Source of the DNA: Rubrivirga marina
GTDB taxonomy: Bacteria > Bacteroidota > Rhodothermia > Rhodothermales > Rubricoccaceae
Reading direction: 5' to 3'
DNA length: 64,000 bases
NCBI RefSeq assembly: GCF_002283365.1
Contig: NZ_MQWD01000001.1
Span: 253,948-317,947 of the forward strand
The notes below the pieces were generated by a model. It had not been told where the DNA came from and made no database searches. It worked only from the letters and a program-made list of their open reading frames with translations. Numbering within the stretch: position 1 is the stretch's first letter; each line of letters begins with the position of its first letter. Both the position numbers and the translations under genes were made by a program. Shown here piece by piece: positions 42,198 to 57,599 of this stretch.

Positions 42198-42632
42198 ATG
42201 CGCCCCGCACTCGGACTTCTCGCCGCCACCCTCCTCGTCGCCCTCGCCCAGTCGGCGACGGCACAGACCTACTCCAACCAGGTCCGCGCCCAGCTCGACG
42301 CCGCCGAGCAGACGCTCCGCGGCCAGGGCTTCCGCCCGACCCACGACTACGAGATCGGCAGCCTCGACGACGGCGCGGAGGAGTCGTTCACGCTCCGGCT
42401 CAGCGCCGAGCGCGAGTACGCCCTCGTCGGCGCCTGCGACGCGGACTGCGACGACATGGACTTCTGGCTCTACGATGAGAACGACAACCTCATCGACTCC
42501 GACACGAGCACCGACGACGTGCCGATCGTCCGCGTGACGCCCCGGTGGTCGGGCGCCTTCCGGATCCGCGTGCGGATGTACGAGTGCTCCGTCGAGCCCT
42601 GCTACTACGGGATCGGCGTGTTCGGGGGCTGA
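42198..42632 (+). CDS. Secreted protein with a four-cysteine beta domain
   Basis: A 144-residue protein with a Sec signal peptide (MRPALGLLAATLLVALAQSATAQ). The mature domain is beta-rich and has four cysteines at C80, C84, C130 and C135, and resembles bacterial pre-peptidase C-terminal-like sandwiches. The same CxxxC and CxxxxC pattern, with alignable strands, occurs in the C-terminal domain of the CHAT protease at 51916-53802, residues ~545-628. It is therefore likely the stand-alone relative of that sensor-like domain. Its 3' end overlaps the convergent next gene by 28 bases. Confidence 0.7.
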   Translation: MRPALGLLAATLLVALAQSATAQTYSNQVRAQLDAAEQTLRGQGFRPTHDYEIGSLDDGAEESFTLRLSAEREYALVGACDADCDDMDFWLYDENDNLIDSDTSTDDVPIVRVTPRWSGAFRIRVRMYECSVEPCYYGIGVFGG

Positions 42633-48132: not shown

Positions 48133-48288
48133 CTGGCGGACAGCGCCGCCCCCCCGCGCTCCGTCCGCCGTTCGGGGCTGGACGGCGATCGTAGCAAACT
48201 GGGTCGGCGGCGAGCACGACCGAGACCGTCGCCGAACGGACGGGGTGCGGCGTCGAGAAGCACGACCGGCTGGCGAGGCCTCGCCGAC

Positions 48289-48318
48289 CCGGCCCCTCCG
48301 CAACGGAGCCGGGGCCGG
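48289..48318. terminator. Strong hairpin between purB and the caspase gene
   Basis: CCGGCCCC with TCCG pairs with CGGA and GGGGCCGG, with a small bulge and a three-base loop, about 156 bases after the purB stop. The rest of the 300-base gap holds an AGGCCC/GGGCCT hairpin at 48343-48367 and a relatively AT-rich stretch before the caspase start that may be its promoter. Confidence 0.5.
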
Positions 48319-48432
48319 ACCTCGAGCGTCGACGGGACAGAAGGCCCGGCATAAAACACTGGGCCTCAGGAGGATGGGAAGGGATTATCGCAACCCGACC
48401 TGTATTCTCTGGCCACCTTCCTCCGTCCGGCC

Positions 48433-51400
48433 ATGGCTCCCTCGCCTCCTCGCAAGCGGGCGCTGCTCATCGGGATCGACGAGTACCCGAACCTCAGCGC
48501 GTTCCACCAGCTCGAGGGGTGCGTCAACGACGTCACCGCGATGGCGGGGCTGCTGCGCGACCGCTTCGGCTTCGCCGACGAGGACGTCACGGTCCTGACC
48601 AACGCGGCCGCGACGCGCGCCGGCATCCTCGCTGCGCTCGACCGGCTGGCGGACGCGGTGGAGGCGGACGACGTCGTGGTGGTCCACTACGCCGGGCACG
48701 GTTCACAGATCACCGACCTCGACGGCGACGAGCCCGACGGCCTCGACGAGACGATCGTCCCGCACGACGGCGTCCGCCAGTCGGGCCCCAACACGGACAT
48801 CACCGACGACGAGATCCACGCCTGGATCCAGCGCGTCACGGCCACGACGCCGTTCCTCACGCTCCTCTTCGACTGCTGCCACTCGGGGACGGTCACGCGC
48901 GACGCGTTCGGCGCCCGTGCCCGCTCGCTCGCGCCCGACACGCGCCGCGCCGACCAGATCGGCCGCCGCCCCGGGGGCGTCCCCACGCGGAGCGTCACGG
49001 CGCCCGAGGGGCCGAGCGGCTGGCTTCCGCTCCACGACCGCTACGTCCTGATCGCGGGCTGCCGCGACGACGAGAGCGCCTACGAGTACCGCCCCTCGGA
49101 AGCCGACACGCCCCACGGCGCCCTCACCTACTTCCTCGTCCGCGCCCTGCGCGAGGCCACGCCCGGCACGACCTACCGCGACGTCTACGACCGCATCCGC
49201 CCGTCGGTCACGGCCCACTCGTCGAAGCAGCACCCCCAGATGGAAGGCGCCCTCGACCGGGCCGTCTTCGGCGTCCGCGACCTCGTGCCGATGCCGTTCG
49301 TCGCCGTCGCGGCGCGGGACGGGCAGACGGTGACGCTCGGCGGCGGAGCCGCGCACGGCCTGACCGTCGGCTCAGAGTGGGACGTCTACCCGGCCGGCAC
49401 CAAGACCGTCGCGGCGGCCTCTGCCCTCGGCCGGCTCCGCGTGACCGGCGTCGAGGCCGCCGAGTCGCGGGCGGAGGTCGTGGAGGAGCCGAGGGGCGGG
49501 TCGATCGGCCTCGGCGCGCGGGCCGTCGAGGTACACCGCGGGGCGTCGAGCCCGGCGCTCCGCGTGGACCTGGGCGTGCCCGACGCCGAGGCCCGCCAGC
49601 GCGTCGCGGCCGAGATCGACCGGTCGCCCGTGCTCCAGGCCGTGCCGGAGGGGGCGCCCGCCGACCTCCGGCTGGTCCGGCTGGCGCCGCGCGGCGCCGT
49701 GGCCGAGGGCGACGCCGTCCCCCAACTCGGCCCCCTCCCCGAGGCGACGTGGGCCGCCGTCGGCGCGGACGGGCGGCTGGTGTGCCCGCCCCACCCGGCG
49801 TCGAGGCCCGGCGTCGAGACGCTGATGCGGGAGAACCTCGAGACGGTCGCCCGCTACCGGATCGCCCTCGCCCTCGACAACCCAGTGCCCGGCCCGCTCC
49901 GCGGCTCCATCGACCTCCGGGTCCAACGGCTCGCCAACGGCACGTGGCAGGACGCCGAGCCCGAGGCGGGCGGCGAGGTCGTGTTCGAGGAAGGCGAGCG
50001 GCTGGCCTTCACCGTGACCAACCACCACACGGGGGACGTCTACGTCAACGTCCTCGACTTCGGCCTGGCCGGCGCCGTGTCGCCGCTGACGGTGCCGGGC
50101 TCGAACGAGGCGCTGGCGCCGGGCAACACCCTGCGGGTGGGCTACCCCAAGGGGATCCCGCTCGGCTTCCCCGCGACGTTCCCGTTCGTGCGGGAGCCCG
50201 GCGACGCCGAGGCGGTCGAGGGGACGGAGACGCTCAAGGCGTTCGTCACCACCCGCCCCACCGACTTCTCCGCGCTGAAGCAGGGCGGCGTCCGCTCGGC
50301 CGACCCCAGCAGCGGGTCGAGCCTCTCGGCGCTCCTGCGCCGGACGTTCCAGGGGGCCCCGACCCGCGACCTGTTCATCGACGAGGCGGAGCCCGGTGAC
50401 GACTGGACGACGGTCATGCGCACGTTCGTCCTCCGCCGCACCAGCCAGGGCGCCCCGCTCGGCGAGCGCGGCCTCGACCTGGGCGAGATCACGATCCGGG
50501 CGAGCGGGCTGGAGGGGCAGGTCCGCGTGCTCCCCCCGCCGCGGTTCAGCGCCCGCACCCGGAGCGCCGCGCCGACGACGGGCGCGCTCGACGCCGTGCT
50601 GGCGGGCGAGCACGTCGAGACGCTCCAGACGGTCGAGATCCAGCAGGCCCGGGTGCCCGCCACGCGCAGCCTGGGCGCCGAGCCCGAGATCCGGGTCGAC
50701 GTGCCGGCCGTCGAGGGCCACGGCCAGCTCCTGCTGGCGACCGACGAGAGCGGCGTCACGACGTGGCACGTCGCGGAGTCGCAGGCGGCCACGCGCAGCC
50801 TGGGCGCCACGCAGACGTTCGTGATCCGCGACGCCCGGCCCGCTCCGACGGCGACGGTCGCCACGCGTGGGCTCGTGGGCGCGGTCGGGACGAAGCTTAT
50901 CAAGCGGCTCGTCTTCCCCCTCATCGACCCGGTCCTCGGCGCCGTCGGGGCCCACTTCGCCGAGCGTTGGGAGGAGAAACGGCGGCCCTACGCCCTCCGC
51001 CCGTTCACGCCCGCCGACTTCCGGGCGCCCGCCGCCCCGCTCGGCGCCGACGACTGGCGGCGGCTCGGGGAGGGCCGGTCGCTCCTGTTCGTCCACGGCA
51101 CCTTCAGTCGGGCCCACTCGGCCTTCGGCGGGCTCGACGCCGAGACGCTGGCCGCGCTCGGCGACCGCTACGGCGGGCGCGTGTTCGCCTTCGACCACTT
51201 TACGCTCTCGCACGACCCCGAGGCCAACGTCCGCTGGCTGGTCGAGCACCTCCCGGACGACGCCGCGCTCGACCTCGACGTGGTGTGCCACTCGCGCGGG
51301 GGGCTCGTCAGCCGGGTCCTCGCCGAGCAGCAGAGCGCGCTGTCGCTGGGCGCGCGATCACTGCGCGTCGGGACGGTCGTGTTCGTGGCGTCGCCGAACG

Positions 51401-51900
51401 CCGGCACCTCCCTCGCCGACCCCGACCACATGGGGACGCTGGTGGACGCCTACACCAACCTCCTCAACTTCATCCCCGGCTCCCCCGTGACCGACGTCCT
51501 GGAGGGCGTGGTGACCGTCGTGAAGCAGCTCGCCGTGGGCGCCCTCGGGGGGCTCGACGGGCTCCAGGCGATGCGGCCGGGCGGGCCCTTCCTCCGCGAC
51601 CTCAACGCCCTCAACGGGCGCGGCGACACCCGCTACCTCGCCCTCGGCGCCGACTACCGGGCCACGCAGCCGGGGCTGGCGGCGTGGGTCAAGAACCGGC
51701 TGATGGGCCGCATCTTCGGATCCGCGAACGACCTCGTCGTCCCCACCGCGAGCGTCTACGCCGACACCGACGGCGACGGGGTGGACCTGGTCGCCGAGGC
51801 GGACCGCCACGTCTTCGCCGCCGACGCGGCGATCTCGCACACCGGGTTCTTCCAGCATCCCGACGCGCAGGCCCGCCTGCTCACGTGGCTCCAGGCCTGA
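48433..51900 (+). CDS. Metacaspase-like protease fused to a DUF4384-like region and an alpha/beta hydrolase
   Basis: A 1155-residue cytoplasmic multidomain protein without signal peptide. Residues 6-283 form a caspase-fold protease, with catalytic His89 in HYAGHGSQ and Cys149 in DCCHSGT. The acidic loop DEPDGLDETIVPHDG is typical of type I metacaspases, which cut after Arg/Lys. Residues ~475-600 resemble DUF4384. A linker holds ATR(S/G)L repeats at R745, R788 and R812. Residues ~880-1155 are an alpha/beta hydrolase with HGTF (H888), the nucleophile elbow CHSRGG (Ser954), Asp1100 and His1136. It is 15 bases upstream of the CHAT gene, so surely one transcript. A regulated killing or signalling enzyme is inferred. 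Confidence 0.88.
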   Translation: MAPSPPRKRALLIGIDEYPNLSAFHQLEGCVNDVTAMAGLLRDRFGFADEDVTVLTNAAATRAGILAALDRLADAVEADDVVVVHYAGHGSQITDLDGDEPDGLDETIVPHDGVRQSGPNTDITDDEIHAWIQRVTATTPFLTLLFDCCHSGTVTRDAFGARARSLAPDTRRADQIGRRPGGVPTRSVTAPEGPSGWLPLHDRYVLIAGCRDDESAYEYRPSEADTPHGALTYFLVRALREATPGTTYRDVYDRIRPSVTAHSSKQHPQMEGALDRAVFGVRDLVPMPFVAVAARDGQTVTLGGGAAHGLTVGSEWDVYPAGTKTVAAASALGRLRVTGVEAAESRAEVVEEPRGGSIGLGARAVEVHRGASSPALRVDLGVPDAEARQRVAAEIDRSPVLQAVPEGAPADLRLVRLAPRGAVAEGDAVPQLGPLPEATWAAVGADGRLVCPPHPASRPGVETLMRENLETVARYRIALALDNPVPGPLRGSIDLRVQRLANGTWQDAEPEAGGEVVFEEGERLAFTVTNHHTGDVYVNVLDFGLAGAVSPLTVPGSNEALAPGNTLRVGYPKGIPLGFPATFPFVREPGDAEAVEGTETLKAFVTTRPTDFSALKQGGVRSADPSSGSSLSALLRRTFQGAPTRDLFIDEAEPGDDWTTVMRTFVLRRTSQGAPLGERGLDLGEITIRASGLEGQVRVLPPPRFSARTRSAAPTTGALDAVLAGEHVETLQTVEIQQARVPATRSLGAEPEIRVDVPAVEGHGQLLLATDESGVTTWHVAESQAATRSLGATQTFVIRDARPAPTATVATRGLVGAVGTKLIKRLVFPLIDPVLGAVGAHFAERWEEKRRPYALRPFTPADFRAPAAPLGADDWRRLGEGRSLLFVHGTFSRAHSAFGGLDAETLAALGDRYGGRVFAFDHFTLSHDPEANVRWLVEHLPDDAALDLDVVCHSRGGLVSRVLAEQQSALSLGARSLRVGTVVFVASPNAGTSLADPDHMGTLVDAYTNLLNFIPGSPVTDVLEGVVTVVKQLAVGALGGLDGLQAMRPGGPFLRDLNALNGRGDTRYLALGADYRATQPGLAAWVKNRLMGRIFGSANDLVVPTASVYADTDGDGVDLVAEADRHVFAADAAISHTGFFQHPDAQARLLTWLQA

Positions 51901-51915
51901 CCCCGCCCCAAACCG

Positions 51916-53802
51916 ATGACCGAGTACCGCAACTTCTGGATCCGCATCGAGAACCGGGCCGACGGGCTCTACGTCTCCTCAAACTCGAGGGCGAGCGGGG
52001 CCGTGTCCGCGCCGCTCGTGCTCCCGGGGGACCTCGACGCGTACCGGCTCGAGGCTCTCCTGAAGGCGTCGAGCGCGACCCGGGGCGCCTCGGCCGGCCC
52101 CCGCCGCGACCTGATCCTCGAAGGCGCCGAGGCGCCCGCCGGCGTCTCCGAGCGCGAGGTGGGGAGCGAGCTGTTCCGCGCCCTCCTGCCCGGCCCGGTC
52201 CGCGACGCGTTCATGCGCAGCGCGGGGAGCGGCAAGGAGAACGGCGTCCGGATCCGCCTCCAGATCGACCCCAACGACCCGGAGCTCGCGAAGCTGGCCA
52301 GCCTCCCGTGGGAGCTGATCTACAACGACGTGACGCGCAAGGCGCTGGGCCGGTCCATGTACACCCCAGTGATCCGGTCGCTCGACGTGGCGCAGCCCTA
52401 CACGATGCGCCCGTTCGCGCCGCCACTCCGCGTGCTCCTGGTCCTGGCCAACCCCTCCGACACCCACCCGCTCGACCTCGACGGGGAGAAGCGGCGCGTC
52501 GTCGAGATCCTGGAGGGCCTCGACGGTGTGGAGGTCACCGTCATCGAGCATGCCACGGAGCGGAGGATCTACGACGCCCTCGACACCGGGCAGTACCACG
52601 CCCTCCACTACATGGGCCACGGCGGGTTCAGCGACTCGCGCGGCGGCGTCCTGCTTCTGGAGGACGAGCACGGGCGGTCCGCCCCGCTCTCCGCCGCCGA
52701 GCTCGGCGACGACCTCGCCGAGCGGCGCGCGATGCGCCTCGTGTTCCTCAACGCCTGCGACACCGGCCGGGCCAGCCACCGGGCCGGCGCCGACCCGTTC
52801 ACGGGCGTGGCCTCGGCACTCGTCGCGGCCGGCATCCCGGCCGTCGTCGCCATGCAGGTGCCCGTCACGGACACCGCCGCGCTCGCCTTCTCCGACAAGT
52901 TCTACACGATGATCGCCCACGGCGAGCCGGTCGACGCGGCCGTGGCCGTCGGGCGGCGGGCCATCTGGCGGGTCGACGAGAGCTCTCTCGAGTGGGCCAC
53001 CCCCGTGCTGTTCATGCGGGCCTCGGACGGCTTCCTGTTCGGGAAGCCGCCCTCCGGCGGAGAGGCCCGGCCCTCCGCCGTCGCCCCCGCGCCAGCGACG
53101 CCGGCCGAGCGGCCGCAGGCGGGACGACCGCGAGCAGAACGGCCGCCCGCCGAGCGGCCGCCAGCGGCGGCCACGCCTACAACGAGCATCGGTCAGAAGG
53201 TGAAGACGTGGGGCATCGGCGTCCTGGCGGGCCTCGGCGGGCTCGTGGTCCTCGCGGTCGCCATCGGCGAGTGCAGCGGCGACGTCGAGGACCCCTCCAT
53301 GGCCGCCGACAACAGCGTGGAGGAGGCCGAGATGTCCGATGAGGCCGAGACGCCCGACGAGGCTGAGACGTCCGACGAGGCGAGAGCCCTCGTCTCCAAC
53401 AGTGGAATCGCCGAGTACGCAGCCGATCCCGTTCAGCTGAGCGTGGCCCAGAACCTCGTCGACATGCGGCCGGACGGGATCGCGGGTGAGATGGAGACCA
53501 TCCTGTTCCTGTTCGAGAACGAGCCGGAGCTCATTCCTCTGCCCGTGGAGCCGGACCGCCAGTACGAGGTGATCGGGGTCTGCGACGACGACTGCACCGG
53601 CCTCTACCTGGAGCTCCTCCAGGCCGACGGCGTCACCCCCCTCGAGACGCAGGGCGATGTGACTGTGGACGACGGCAGCGAACCCCGCCTCCGCGTGACC
53701 CCCACGTCGGCAGACACCTACACCCTCGCCGTCACCCTCACCGACTGCTCCACGGTGCAGTGCTACGTCGGCGTCAGCGTCTACGAGTACGCGCTGGAGT
53801 AG
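51916..53802 (+). CDS. Membrane-anchored CHAT protease with extracytoplasmic four-Cys domain
   Basis: A 628-residue protein. The N-terminal ~380 residues form a CHAT (caspase HetF associated with TPR) protease. It has the LPWELIYN lead-in, catalytic His235 in HYMGHGG and Cys281 in FLNACDTG. A Pro/Ala/Arg-rich linker (376-428) leads to one transmembrane helix (about 432-452), then an acidic spacer with EAE(M/T)SDEAE repeats (469-489). A beta-rich domain (~505-628) follows with C556, C560, C611 and C616. Positive residues before the helix and likely disulfides after it put CHAT in the cytoplasm and the C-domain outside the inner membrane. Partner of the upstream caspase gene. Confidence 0.88.
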   Translation: MTEYRNFWIRIENRADGLYVSSNSRASGAVSAPLVLPGDLDAYRLEALLKASSATRGASAGPRRDLILEGAEAPAGVSEREVGSELFRALLPGPVRDAFMRSAGSGKENGVRIRLQIDPNDPELAKLASLPWELIYNDVTRKALGRSMYTPVIRSLDVAQPYTMRPFAPPLRVLLVLANPSDTHPLDLDGEKRRVVEILEGLDGVEVTVIEHATERRIYDALDTGQYHALHYMGHGGFSDSRGGVLLLEDEHGRSAPLSAAELGDDLAERRAMRLVFLNACDTGRASHRAGADPFTGVASALVAAGIPAVVAMQVPVTDTAALAFSDKFYTMIAHGEPVDAAVAVGRRAIWRVDESSLEWATPVLFMRASDGFLFGKPPSGGEARPSAVAPAPATPAERPQAGRPRAERPPAERPPAAATPTTSIGQKVKTWGIGVLAGLGGLVVLAVAIGECSGDVEDPSMAADNSVEEAEMSDEAETPDEAETSDEARALVSNSGIAEYAADPVQLSVAQNLVDMRPDGIAGEMETILFLFENEPELIPLPVEPDRQYEVIGVCDDDCTGLYLELLQADGVTPLETQGDVTVDDGSEPRLRVTPTSADTYTLAVTLTDCSTVQCYVGVSVYEYALE

Positions 53803-54001
53803 TCAGGGAGGCCACGCGCTCGATCGACGAATCTCTGCGCGAATCACACAACGCCTAGATGCCTGTTTCTTGAAGCTAATTTACTGCAAGTTATGGTGGC
53901 ATAATAAGAGGACGGCGCTCGACCATCACTTATCAAGACGACCTGCCTGAGCGCCCTTCCGCAACACCCGAGCGGTTCACGACCACCGAGAGGGTGGGCC
54001 G
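53803..54001. other. AT-rich spacer between convergent genes
   Basis: This 199-base gap is far richer in A and T than the rest of the window, especially 53840-53940 (for example GCTAATTTACTG and GGCATAATAAG). It holds no gene. A GGCGCTC/GAGCGCC pairing (53914-53920 with 53949-53955) is the only inverted repeat seen. It separates the caspase/CHAT pair from the small Gly-tailed protein gene. Confidence 0.5.
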
Positions 54002-54307
54002 CTAGACCCCGCCGCCGCCGCCGCCGCCGGTGTACTGCTTGTCTCGGCCGCCCTTGCACGGCGCGCTCAGGTCCCCGACGAGCGTCATGAACTCGAACGA
54101 CCCTCTGGCGTCCGGCTGCACCGTGAGGGCCTCGACCTGCCCCATCGGGATCTCGTACCGCGCACCTCCGAAGAACGACTTCGGGTCGATGCACAGGACG
54201 ACGTCGGCCCCGTCGGCGTGGAACGACACGGTGTCGCCGGGGCCGGCGGGGATGTCGGAGGGCGAGGGGGTGCCGTCGCTGGCGATCGTGACCTTGACGT
54301 CGGGCAT
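54002..54307 (-). CDS. Small beta-rich protein with a seven-glycine C-terminus
   Basis: A 101-residue protein without signal peptide (MPDVKVTIASDGTPSPSDIP). The body looks like a beta sandwich, with GDTVSFHADGADVVLCIDP reminiscent of a cupredoxin-like start but without the usual copper ligands. The C-terminus is CKGGRDKQYT followed by seven Gly and Val. I do not recognise the family. It is followed upstream on the same strand by the Ser/Thr kinase gene (33 bases), so the two are probably cotranscribed, and it converges on the CHAT gene. Confidence 0.6.
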   Translation of the reverse strand: MPDVKVTIASDGTPSPSDIPAGPGDTVSFHADGADVVLCIDPKSFFGGARYEIPMGQVEALTVQPDARGSFEFMTLVGDLSAPCKGGRDKQYTGGGGGGGV

Positions 54308-54340
54308 GGGAGCGTGGAGAGTGGGGACCGCGCCACGCGA

Positions 54341-57265
54341 TCACCCGGGTGGAGAGGAAGGAGCCGTGAGCAAGCGGGCGTAGCCCGGGTCGGCCCGGAG
54401 CGCGCCGAGCCACGGGTCGCGCTCGACAGCGTCCGGGTCGAGCCCCTGCTCGAATCCGTCGCGGAGTGAATCTAAGGCGCGCGTCCGATCCCCCAGTTTT
54501 TCGTAGACCTGAGCGATGGTGGCGTAGGTCCCCGGCCGCTTCTGCGGAAGCGCGACGAGACGCCTGAGAGCCTCGCGGGCGAGCTCGGACCGGCCGGTGT
54601 AGGCGTAGCCGTAGGCCAGCCCGATCAGGCCGTCCTCGTCGTTCGGGTTCACCTCCACGACGCGCGTGTCGAGGGCGAGCATCCGTCGCCACGCCCGGTC
54701 GGCCCGGACGGAGTCACCTTCGAGCGCGTAGGCGTTGCCGAGGAAGAACCAGCGGTCCGAGTTCAGGCTGTCGAGGACGACCGCGCGCCGGTACCACTGG
54801 GCCGCCTCGGCGTAGGCCCCTCGGTCGTACTCGAGCCTCCCGAGGTTGATGTACGCGTCGGCCGTCGGGCCGGTCGCCGCGGGGTTGGCCTGGGCGCCCT
54901 TCCGGTACCACACGGCAGCGGAGTCGAGCTGGCCGAGCTGCTCGAAGGCCCCACCGAGGTTGGTGTAGCCCCACGGGTTCGTCGGGTTCAGCGCGACCAC
55001 CCTGCGGAACAGCGGGATCGCGTCCTCCGGCCGGCCGACGTAGTTGTAGACGTTCCCGAGGTTGTTGTAGAACCCCCAGTAGCCCGGCTTGAGCGCGATG
55101 GCCCGGCGGTACGCGACCTCCGCCTCGTCCACCCGGCCGAGGAAGTAGAGCGTGGCGCCGAGCTGCTGGTAGGCCAGCGCGTTCGTCTCGTCGAGCGCGA
55201 GCGCGCGGCGGAATTCGGCCTCGGCCTCGGCGTAGCGGCCGGTCCCCTTGTAGATCATCCCGAGCGTCACGCGGACCGCCGCGAGGTCCTCGTCGAGCGC
55301 GACGGCCCGCTCGCCGGCCTCGGACGCGCGCTCGACCCACTGGGGGTCGCTGGTCGCCTCGTACTTCCGCCAGTAGGCCTCGCCGAGCCCGGCCCACGCG
55401 ATGGCGTAGCGGTCGTCGAGGGCGAGGGCCTGCTCGAACAGCACGATGGCCCGATCGATGGCCGCCTCCGTCCCGTAGTCCAGGAGGGTGCCGCGGGCCT
55501 GCGTGTAGAGGTCGAAGGCCTGCGGGCTGTCGGTGCCGCCCGCGGCGAGGGCGAGGCGGGCGGCCTCGTCGAGCTCCACGTCGAGCAGGCTCGCCAGCGC
55601 GAGCGCGACGCTGTCCTGGAAGGCCAGCAGATCGGTCGTGGTCTTGTCGAGGACCCGGCTGCCCAGGCGCTGGTCGCTCGCCGCGTCGTAGACCTCCATC
55701 GTCAGGCGGACCCGGTCGTCGGCCCGCTGGACGCTCCCGCTCACCACGAGGTCGGCCCCGAGCGCCTCGGCGGCCTCTCGGGGCGCCCGGGCCTCCAGAG
55801 CCCGGGCGTCGTCGGTGGGCAGGACCGAGAGGCGGTCCGAGAACTGCTCCATCTCGGTCAGCGACGCGCCGATGGTGTAGACGAGCCCGTCGATGAACGC
55901 CTGGTTCTCCGCCCCGCCGCCGACGTTGGCGAATGGGAGCACGGCGACCTGACGGAGCCCGGGGGCCACCGCGACGCTCCGCTCGGCCCCGCCGCCCCCC
56001 ACACTGGGCCCGACCACGGCGACGCCGAGGCCGGCCAGTCCGAGGAGCGCCGCGAGGACCCCCACCTCGATTCCGCTCACGCGCGAGCGGCCCTGCTCGC
56101 CGTGGTACCACGCGACGACGAGCGCACAGACGAACCCGACGGCGAGGACGATCGGCACCGCGCGGAGGAGCCACTGGGGCCACGCGTAGACCCCTCCGAG
56201 GGCGACCACCACCTGGAGGACGAGCCACGCCCCGGCGAGATAGGCCAGCCCCCACTGGACGAGCTTGCGGTCCTTGACCCTGTCGAGCGGGGGGAGGCCG
56301 ACCCCGACGGGCGCGCCTCCGCGGCCCCGCCGCCCCGTCCGGTCAGACGCCCCCTCGTCACCGGATGGCAGGGCCGCGGCCGGGGCTGTCGTGCCCTGCC
56401 GGACCGCGTCGAGGGCGTCCGCGAGCGCCGACGCGTCGGGGTAGCGGTCGGCCGGGTCCTTCTCGAGGCACCGCCCGACGATGGCCGCCAGCGGGGCGGG
56501 GACGCCAGACAGGGGCCGGGGCTCCTCGTGCAAGATGGAATAGATGACGGCCTGGTCGTAGGCGCCCTGGAAGGGCCGCTCGCCGGCGAGCATCTCGTAC
56601 AGCACGACGCCCAGCGCCCACTGGTCCGCCCGCGCATCGACGGGCTCCCCGCGCGTCTGCTCCGGGCTCATGTAGGCCATCGTCCCGAGCGTGGTGCCGG
56701 CCTTCGTGAGCAGCGCGTCGGTCGCCTTGGCGATCCCGAAGTCGACCAGCTTGGCCCGCCCGTCGGGCGTGACCATGATGTTGGCCGGCTTGACGTCGCG
56801 GTGGATGACGCCGGCCGCGTGCGCACACGCCAGGCCGTGCGCGACCTGGGCGGCGAGGGCCGCCGCGTCGTCGGGCGCCATCGGCCCCTCGTCCAGCCGC
56901 GACCGGAGCGAGGTCCCGGGGACGTAGGCCATCGCGATGAATGGGCTGCCGTCGTCGGCTCTCCCAATCTCGTGGACGGTGCAGATGTGGGGGTGGTCCA
57001 GCGCGGAGGCGGCCCGGGCCTCGGCCACGAACCGCTCGTTGGCCCCGGCATCGGAGCTGAGCGCGGGCGGGAGGAACTTGAGCGCGACGTCCCGCCGCAG
57101 TCGCGTGTCGCGGGCGCGGTACACGATGCCCATCCCGCCCCCGCCGATCACGCCCTCGACGGCGTAGTGCGCGACCGTGGTGCCCTGGAGCCCGTAGGGG
57201 TCGGCGTGGGCCGGCCCCTCCCCCGAGACTCCGTCCGTGCCGGATGTGCCCCCGTGGCTCCCCAT
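54341..57265 (-). CDS. Membrane Ser/Thr protein kinase with TolB-like and TPR domains
   Basis: A 974-residue signalling protein. The Hanks-type kinase domain has the Gly-rich loop GGGGMGIVYRARD (41-53), Lys63, HRDVKP (Asp157) and DFG (175-177), then GTMAYMSPEQ. Three helices follow (about residues 330-440, as in KLVQWGLAYLAGAWLVLQVV). A TolB/FlgO-like domain comes next (VAVLPFANVGG) and about eight TPR units fill the C-terminal half. The C-part probably faces the periplasm or binds partners. ATG 57265 is chosen; an ATG at 57301 would add 12 residues. It is cotranscribed with the Gly-tail gene and may monitor the caspase/CHAT locus. Confidence 0.9.
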   Translation of the reverse strand: MGSHGGTSGTDGVSGEGPAHADPYGLQGTTVAHYAVEGVIGGGGMGIVYRARDTRLRRDVALKFLPPALSSDAGANERFVAEARAASALDHPHICTVHEIGRADDGSPFIAMAYVPGTSLRSRLDEGPMAPDDAAALAAQVAHGLACAHAAGVIHRDVKPANIMVTPDGRAKLVDFGIAKATDALLTKAGTTLGTMAYMSPEQTRGEPVDARADQWALGVVLYEMLAGERPFQGAYDQAVIYSILHEEPRPLSGVPAPLAAIVGRCLEKDPADRYPDASALADALDAVRQGTTAPAAALPSGDEGASDRTGRRGRGGAPVGVGLPPLDRVKDRKLVQWGLAYLAGAWLVLQVVVALGGVYAWPQWLLRAVPIVLAVGFVCALVVAWYHGEQGRSRVSGIEVGVLAALLGLAGLGVAVVGPSVGGGGAERSVAVAPGLRQVAVLPFANVGGGAENQAFIDGLVYTIGASLTEMEQFSDRLSVLPTDDARALEARAPREAAEALGADLVVSGSVQRADDRVRLTMEVYDAASDQRLGSRVLDKTTTDLLAFQDSVALALASLLDVELDEAARLALAAGGTDSPQAFDLYTQARGTLLDYGTEAAIDRAIVLFEQALALDDRYAIAWAGLGEAYWRKYEATSDPQWVERASEAGERAVALDEDLAAVRVTLGMIYKGTGRYAEAEAEFRRALALDETNALAYQQLGATLYFLGRVDEAEVAYRRAIALKPGYWGFYNNLGNVYNYVGRPEDAIPLFRRVVALNPTNPWGYTNLGGAFEQLGQLDSAAVWYRKGAQANPAATGPTADAYINLGRLEYDRGAYAEAAQWYRRAVVLDSLNSDRWFFLGNAYALEGDSVRADRAWRRMLALDTRVVEVNPNDEDGLIGLAYGYAYTGRSELAREALRRLVALPQKRPGTYATIAQVYEKLGDRTRALDSLRDGFEQGLDPDAVERDPWLGALRADPGYARLLTAPSSPPG

Positions 57266-57599
57266 CGATTTCCAGGATGATGCCGGTCGAACATACCGCA
57301 CCCCGGGCGGACCCGATCCTGGGCGTCCGGCGGCCGGCCGCCAACGGGACCGGCGACGAGCCGCGGGCGCCCCCCACTCCCGCAGCCTTCGGACCTCGAC
57401 GGGCGCCTTCTACCGCCTCCAGCCCAACGCCCGGGCGCATCCGGCCCTGCCGGCCTCGGTCGCCCTGCGGACCCACCGAGGCGGGCGGAGGGGCGCCTCG
57501 GCTTCCCGGGATGTCCACGTCCGTGGGGCAGGCCCGGACCCGCGCGGGGCACGGGGCGTCGTAGCTTTCGAGGCCCCTCCTCTGCCCGCGGCGCCCTCG
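57266..57599. promoter_or_regulatory. Divergent intergenic region of kinase and nuo operon
   Basis: This 334-base gap holds the promoters of the kinase gene (minus) and the nuo operon (plus). I see no confident promoter motif. A CCGAGGCG/CGCCTCGG hairpin (57476-57483 with 57494-57501) belongs to the dispersed palindromes. Confidence 0.35.

What the first reader, a model, noticed from the sequence alone, without database searches (positions are those of the whole stretch)
48433..53802. Two clan-CD proteases, a metacaspase-hydrolase fusion and a membrane CHAT protein, encoded as a tight pair
Genes 15 bases apart encode a protein with a full caspase dyad (His89/Cys149) fused to an alpha/beta hydrolase triad (Ser954, Asp1100, His1136), and a CHAT protease (His235/Cys281) anchored in the membrane. 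Bacterial caspase and CHAT proteases are known in regulated-death and conflict systems, for example the CRISPR-linked CHAT protease and caspase-gasdermin pairs. Pairing both, with a lipase-like effector in place of gasdermin, is unusual. I infer a two-step cascade in which the CHAT protein senses the envelope and activates the caspase, releasing the hydrolase to attack lipids or another ester.
Basis: partly seen in the sequence, partly recalled or inferred. Interest (0 to 1): 0.82.

Follow-up and report, generated by a model that had tools for sequence, protein, structure and literature searches.

The report
Kinase–metacaspase–hydrolase–CHAT module
A bacterium carries a removable four-gene block in which a caspase-like protease is welded to a probable ester- or lipid-cutting enzyme and sits next to a second, membrane-anchored caspase relative and a sensor kinase; conserved arginine sites between the parts suggest that the protease cuts itself and frees the enzyme, much as animal cell-death proteases unleash their effectors.

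Summary
Window 48433-51900 encodes a metacaspase (AF2 model vs AtMC4, Z 27) fused to a DUF7379 alpha/beta hydrolase; 51916-53802 encodes a membrane CHAT protease (AF2 model vs SAVED-CHAT, Z 18.8). All named catalytic residues are present and invariant in the relatives aligned. The pairing is real: all four full-length members in the class have CHAT in the same cluster, a distant relative has the fusion overlapping a TPR-CHAT gene, and elsewhere DUF7379 and CHAT are fused in one protein. First, the unit is larger: a TPR receptor kinase and a small cupredoxin-like protein belong to it, and the four genes form one 9.3-kb block absent between purB and nuoA in three same-genus genomes. Second, P1 carries five TR(S/G) motifs, one in the p20-p10 loop and four in linkers before the hydrolase, kept in all four orthologues although two linkers are only about 25% identical, and all in low-confidence (probably disordered) segments. 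I infer Arg-specific self-processing that frees the hydrolase. The proposed direction (CHAT activates caspase) is untested; lipid target and cell death are inference. Caspase/hydrolase coupling and CHAT-to-caspase cascades have precedents: a new variant of a known kind.

The parts
48433..51900 (+). P1, 1155 aa: metacaspase (7-280) - beta-rich middle with weak DUF4384 (about 290-700) - beta modules in disordered linkers (702-812) - hydrophobic helix (814-850) - DUF7379 alpha/beta hydrolase (872-1155)
48697..48699 (+). H89 of the caspase dyad (GHG)
48877..48879 (+). C149 of the caspase dyad (DCCHSG)
48985..48993 (+). TRS motif, R186, in the p20-p10 loop; predicted self-activation cut
50557..50565 (+). 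TRS motif, R710, disordered linker
50662..50670 (+). TRS motif, R745, disordered linker
50791..50799 (+). TRS motif, R788, disordered linker
50863..50871 (+). TRG motif, R812, just before the hydrophobic helix and hydrolase; predicted release cut
51292..51294 (+). S954, hydrolase nucleophile (CHSRGG)
51730..51732 (+). D1100, candidate triad acid of the hydrolase
51838..51840 (+). H1136, candidate triad histidine of the hydrolase
51916..53802 (+). P2, 628 aa: N-terminal beta region, CHAT protease (81-364), Pro-rich linker, TM 431-453, variable extracytoplasmic C-terminus with paired cysteines
54002..54307 (-). small 101-aa beta protein, two invariant Cys, Gly-rich tail, weakly cupredoxin-like without conserved His ligands
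54341..57265 (-). Ser/Thr kinase - about three TM helices (by eye) - TolB_N-like/TPR region; receptor-like sensor kinase
48134..57452 (.). 9.3-kb block holding all four genes, absent at the purB-nuoA junction of the closest same-genus genome

Best explanation
The four genes form one transferable, envelope-linked proteolytic effector module. The TPR receptor kinase and the extracytoplasmic part of the CHAT protein sense a stress or invader signal. The metacaspase part of P1 is then activated, cuts itself after Arg at the TR(S/G) site in its p20-p10 loop, and cuts the four TR(S/G) linker sites, of which R812 frees the alpha/beta hydrolase. The freed hydrolase starts with a conserved hydrophobic helix (GLVGAVGTKLIKRLVFPL...) that could dock it on the membrane, where it would hydrolyse acyl esters, probably lipids, and arrest or kill the cell. 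CHAT is a partner protease in the same pathway; whether it acts before or after the caspase is open. Shown by sequence: domains, catalytic residues, block-wise gain/loss, conserved co-localisation, conserved Arg motifs in low-confidence linkers. Inferred: cleavage, activation order, membrane docking, lipid substrate, death.
For: Domains and residues. Gene association: full-length P1 in 4 of 196 class genomes, CHAT in the same cluster in all four; in a genome of another class of the phylum the caspase-DUF7379 fusion overlaps a TPR-CHAT gene; DUF7379 and CHAT occur in one polypeptide in four further proteins. Of eight informative caspase-DUF7379 fusions five have CHAT nearby; at an assumed 3% chance per locus P is about 1e-6. 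Small protein in 8 of 196 genomes, the TPR kinase homologue adjacent in each (one across a contig break), and all six genomes with a P2-type CHAT are among the eight (Fisher 4e-10, ignoring relatedness). Block: in G165 (purB 97% identical) homology stops at 48133 and resumes at 57453; G128 and G111 also lack the genes. Motifs: 5 TR(S/G) in P1 against 1.0 expected (p 0.003), 7, 5 and 6 in orthologues, 0.4 per 1000 aa in other window proteins; five equivalent alignment positions in 4/4 orthologues although two linkers are 25-27% identical; 5/5 in pLDDT<50 segments against 0/6 of other TR dipeptides. Metacaspase GCVND and D-x-C positions are kept, which by established metacaspase knowledge form an Arg/Lys-specific pocket. 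Helix after R812: top 0.1% of windows for hydrophobicity plus moment in the window protein. Precedents: caspase-activated nuclease canu and protease-gated nucleases (PMC12799240).
Against: No cleavage, activity or toxicity was measured. TR(S/G) linker motifs are clear only in the four close orthologues; the Actinobacterial and Gemmatimonad relatives have fewer and the shorter Chloroflexi caspases almost none. The locus lies among housekeeping genes (purB, nuo), not in a recognisable defence island. Caspase-hydrolase fusions without a nearby CHAT exist (L053, L054, L158). AF2 confidence for P2 is low (52) and for parts of the hydrolase is below 50. The motif was chosen after looking at the sequence; a scan of all tripeptides put TRS second only to CHS of the catalytic motifs.
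Confidence: 0.5

Rival explanations
1. One reading: CHAT senses the envelope and cuts P1, activating caspase and hydrolase in sequence.
For: CHAT is membrane-anchored with an extracytoplasmic tail; P2's CHAT model is closest to SAVED-CHAT, whose system is a proteolytic cascade in type III-B CRISPR (Steens 2024, cited in PMC11417357).
Against: Nothing in the sequence fixes CHAT's cleavage specificity or the direction. G010 and G157 have kinase, small protein and caspase with no P2-type CHAT, so CHAT is not always needed upstream.
Confidence: 0.25
2. The module is a non-lethal envelope-stress signalling pathway in which regulated proteolysis changes a regulator, and the hydrolase remodels or signals rather than kills.
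For: The CHAT-like fold also occurs in the transmembrane anti-sigma factor DdvA (Z 15.2); the kinase is receptor-like; the neighbourhood is housekeeping.
Against: Patchy presence, block-wise gain/loss and swapping of sensor modules (STK-TPR, TIR-TPR, NACHT-caspase, TPR-S caspase) look more like a conflict system.
Confidence: 0.25
3. The TR(S/G) motifs are structural linker elements or a repeated cassette, not cleavage sites; P1 acts as an uncleaved scaffold.
For: Two copies share ATRSLGA exactly, as a repeated cassette would; motifs fade outside the close clade.
Against: One copy lies in the p20-p10 loop, the usual metacaspase self-cut region, and motif positions outlast flanking divergence.
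Confidence: 0.2

Closest known systems
Caspase and alpha/beta-hydrolase pairings of VMAP (vWA-MoxR) ternary conflict systems (Kaur et al. 2020, PMC7159879)
   Same: A caspase-superfamily peptidase accompanied by an alpha/beta hydrolase as a functional pair.
   Different: There the hydrolase is a neighbouring gene and the core is MoxR-vWA-VMAP; here the two are one polypeptide with CHAT, a TPR kinase and a small protein, and no MoxR/vWA gene was noticed in the neighbourhoods examined.
SAVED-CHAT/caspase cascade of type III-B CRISPR (Steens et al. 2024, doi 10.1126/science.adk0378; known here by citation and own knowledge)
   Same: CHAT protease and caspase-like protease in one pathway; P2's CHAT is structurally closest to 8tl0.
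   Different: No SAVED domain in P2 by Pfam; P2 is membrane-anchored; the effector here is a fused hydrolase; no CRISPR genes were noticed next to the block.
canu caspase-nuclease antiphage loci (PMC12799240)
   Same: Caspase thought to activate a co-encoded enzyme effector by proteolysis.
   Different: Effector is an MBL nuclease in a separate gene; the caspase is paracaspase-like with Ig folds, here metacaspase-like.
EACC1-associated caspases (PMC7159879; NCBIfam NF047832)
   Same: Caspase with a variable C-terminal effector, thought to be released by self-proteolysis; membrane partner.
   Different: P1 scores 68.8 against a cut-off of 140 bits; the partner is CHAT rather than EACC1.

Membership tests
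Metacaspase/orthocaspase (C14) | Caspase fold with His-Cys dyad | tested here: met
   Pfam C14 E 1.9e-31; AtMC4 Z 27.3; H89/C149 invariant
Metacaspase/orthocaspase (C14) | Arg/Lys specificity | not testable with these tools
   GCVND and D-x-C positions align with metacaspase-4/-1; specificity itself needs an assay
CHAT protease (clan CD) | CHAT domain with His-Cys dyad | tested here: met
   Pfam E 2.4e-35; H235/C281 invariant; 8tl0 Z 18.8
DUF7379 alpha/beta hydrolase | Profile match over the cut-off and conserved Ser nucleophile | tested here: met
   205 bits against 33; CHSRGG S954 invariant
Lipase/phospholipase | Hydrolysis of lipid esters | not testable with these tools
   Only weak PGAP1/palmitoyl-thioesterase matches of a related protein
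EACC1-associated caspase systems | NCBIfam caspase_w_EACC1 over its cut-off | tested here: not met
   68.8 bits, cut-off 140
EACC1-associated caspase systems | EACC1 gene next to the caspase | not tested
   No EACC1 model was searched for in particular
VMAP ternary system | MoxR and vWA genes beside the caspase/hydrolase | tested here: inconclusive
   Not noticed among neighbours in window and relatives, but no dedicated search
Type III-B SAVED-CHAT cascade | SAVED domain on the CHAT protein | tested here: not met
   Pfam finds only CHAT and a weak C25 match in P2
Cupredoxin (small protein) | Cupredoxin profile match and complete copper ligand set | tested here: inconclusive
   Weak Cupredoxin_1 (best 3e-4, window 0.014) and plastocyanin (0.049); two Cys invariant, no conserved His

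The most novel reading that the evidence does not exclude
A bacterial pathway that combines a receptor kinase, a membrane CHAT protease and a metacaspase zymogen whose own C-terminus is a caged lipid hydrolase, released by cuts at an array of near-identical Arg sites so that a new N-terminal hydrophobic helix carries it to the membrane: a single-chain analogue of caspase plus gasdermin that damages the membrane enzymatically.
Probability: 0.25. Interest if true: 0.82.

Novelty: new variant of a known kind. Interest (0 to 1): 0.6.

Why it matters
It would add an enzymatic membrane-attack arm to the bacterial caspase repertoire, give DUF7379 (named in no paper of the searched library) a role, and tie two clan-CD proteases and a receptor kinase into one transferable unit. 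The TR(S/G) array makes it unusually easy to test: specific bands and single-residue mutants are predicted from the sequence.

Tried and rejected
Defence-library hits (PADLOC caspase, SAVED_CHAT, BovA, PD-T4-6) were treated as domain-level only; the PD-T4-6 matches reflect the kinase domain. The P1 structure search gave only caspase-like rows, so it neither supports nor excludes the hydrolase fold. The plasmid collection holds no full-length P1 (best place covers 53%, most are the caspase part only); the phage collection holds one 8.7-kb unverified record with a P2-like CHAT. The paper of Steens 2024 is not held, so it is cited through PMC11417357. A copper-protein role for the small protein was considered and not adopted because His ligands are not conserved. 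A TR(S/G) cut in P2 as a general feature was not adopted: the exact motif is in only some CHAT relatives.
Full report
What is there. P1 (48433-51900, 1155 aa) and P2 (51916-53802, 628 aa) are real genes, 15 nt apart, in a 4.98-Mb genome of 11 contigs. A same-family genome (G137; its contig C87 and the record of L058 have the same length, 36905) is labelled Rubricoccaceae, so the host is most likely of that family. P1 reads metacaspase, beta-rich middle with weak DUF4384, linkers, DUF7379 hydrolase; P2 reads CHAT, Pro-rich linker, one TM segment, C-terminal region. The genome has only two CHAT genes and three C14 genes. AF2 models match metacaspases (Z 27.3) and the SAVED-CHAT and Craspase CHAT proteases (Z 18.8 and below); P2's model is weak outside the CHAT core.

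The unit is larger than a pair. Next to P2, on the other strand, lie a 101-aa protein and a Ser/Thr kinase with TM helices and TPRs. Relatives of the small protein occur in 8 of 196 genomes of the class. A homologue of the kinase is adjacent in every case; in G187 the two lie at the ends of two contigs and adjacency there is inferred. CHAT or caspase genes are close in seven of the eight. Arrangements: G141 has caspase-hydrolase, PKD/OmpA protein, CHAT, secreted protein, second CHAT, then small and kinase convergent; G137 and G187 have caspase-hydrolase, caspase-NACHT-WD40, CHAT, again convergent with kinase-small; G010 and G157 have kinase, small, caspase without hydrolase, second caspase; G093 has CHAT and kinase-small; G095 has kinase-small apart from its CHATs. 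In the closest same-genus genome, G165, window homology stops at 48133 just after purB and resumes at 57453 before nuoA, leaving a 9.3-kb block that contains exactly the four genes; G128 and G111 have other short content there. The block is therefore gained or lost together, and the purB-nuoA slot is variable.

Association of caspase, hydrolase and CHAT elsewhere. In another class of the phylum a caspase-DUF7379 protein overlaps by 4 nt a TPR-CHAT gene (L162). Single proteins with N-terminal DUF7379 and C-terminal CHAT occur in L036, L037 (with a ternary-complex-associated domain TCAD7), L044 and L159. In Chloroflexi, Pseudomonadaceae and Thermomicrobiales shorter caspases of this type, without hydrolase, sit beside CHAT genes. 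Fusions without nearby CHAT exist in Solirubrobacter, a Gemmatimonad and a third genome. The pairing is thus recurrent, not obligatory.

P1 holds five TR(S/G) motifs: R186 in the p20-p10 loop and R710, R745, R788, R812 in the linkers before the hydrolase. Shuffling gives 1.0 (p 0.003); the three orthologues have 7, 5 and 6; other window proteins have 0.4 per 1000 residues. They occupy five equivalent places in all four orthologues, although two of the linkers are only 25-27% identical. All five lie in AF2 segments below pLDDT 50, and none of the six other TR dipeptides does. Among all tripeptides in the four proteins TRS ranks second, after the CHS of the catalytic motifs. P1 keeps the GCVND and D-x-C positions that line the Arg/Lys pocket in metacaspases (alignment; pocket role from established knowledge). 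After R812 comes a hydrophobic helix conserved to Solirubrobacter; in the window protein it is in the top 0.1% of windows for hydrophobicity and moment together. This makes self-processing with release of the hydrolase the most economical reading, but no cleavage has been shown, and the motif was chosen after inspection.

Mechanism and rivals. I favour: kinase and CHAT sense at the envelope, the metacaspase matures by cutting at R186, cuts at R812 free the hydrolase, and the hydrolase attacks an acyl ester, probably lipid. The order of CHAT and caspase is open; P2 has its own TRG motif at residue 56 in a low-confidence loop, and several relatives have TR near that place, which would fit caspase cutting CHAT as well as the reverse. 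A non-lethal stress pathway remains possible, as the CHAT-like fold also serves in the anti-sigma factor DdvA.

Known relatives. Kaur et al. 2020 (PMC7159879) state that caspase domains of VMAP systems always have a neighbouring alpha/beta hydrolase gene, and describe EACC1 caspases with variable effectors. Canu (PMC12799240) is a caspase-activated nuclease. The type III-B CRISPR cascade joins CHAT and caspase (cited in PMC11417357; content from own knowledge). I found no description of the fusion with CHAT, TPR kinase and cupredoxin-like protein, but eight searches of an open-access library are not proof of absence. Verdict: real, conserved, a new variant of a known kind, with a sharply testable prediction.

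Noticed in passing
window 42198-42632 (+): A 144-aa secreted-looking protein resembles the extracytoplasmic C-terminus of P2 (35% over 43 residues, shared Cys pattern).
   Followed up: partly
window 54002-54307 (-): Small protein family with two invariant Cys and a Gly-rich tail; weakly cupredoxin-like but without conserved His ligands; one relative (L039) carries a lipoprotein-like signal.
   Followed up: partly
purB-nuoA junction, window 48134-57452; L123-L126: The junction holds different genes in each related genome, so it may be a hot spot for gene insertion.
   Followed up: partly
L036 7185-10994, L037 6368-10348, L044 1487-7093, L159 3827-9232: Large single proteins with DUF7379 near the N-terminus and CHAT near the C-terminus, some with LCAT-like or TPR-S parts.
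   Followed up: partly
L034 2802-7697 and L035 4654-8775: Caspase-NACHT/AAA-WD40 proteins between the caspase-hydrolase and CHAT genes.
   Followed up: no
L164 977-2062 (MT836801.1): An 8.7-kb unverified phage-labelled record from human faeces encodes a CHAT protein 37% identical to P2's CHAT part; it may be bacterial DNA.
   Followed up: no
P1 orthologues in L033, L034, L035: The window P1 is closer to G141 of another family (61%) than to same-family G187 and G137 (54 and 50%), which hints at horizontal transfer or two subtypes.
   Followed up: no
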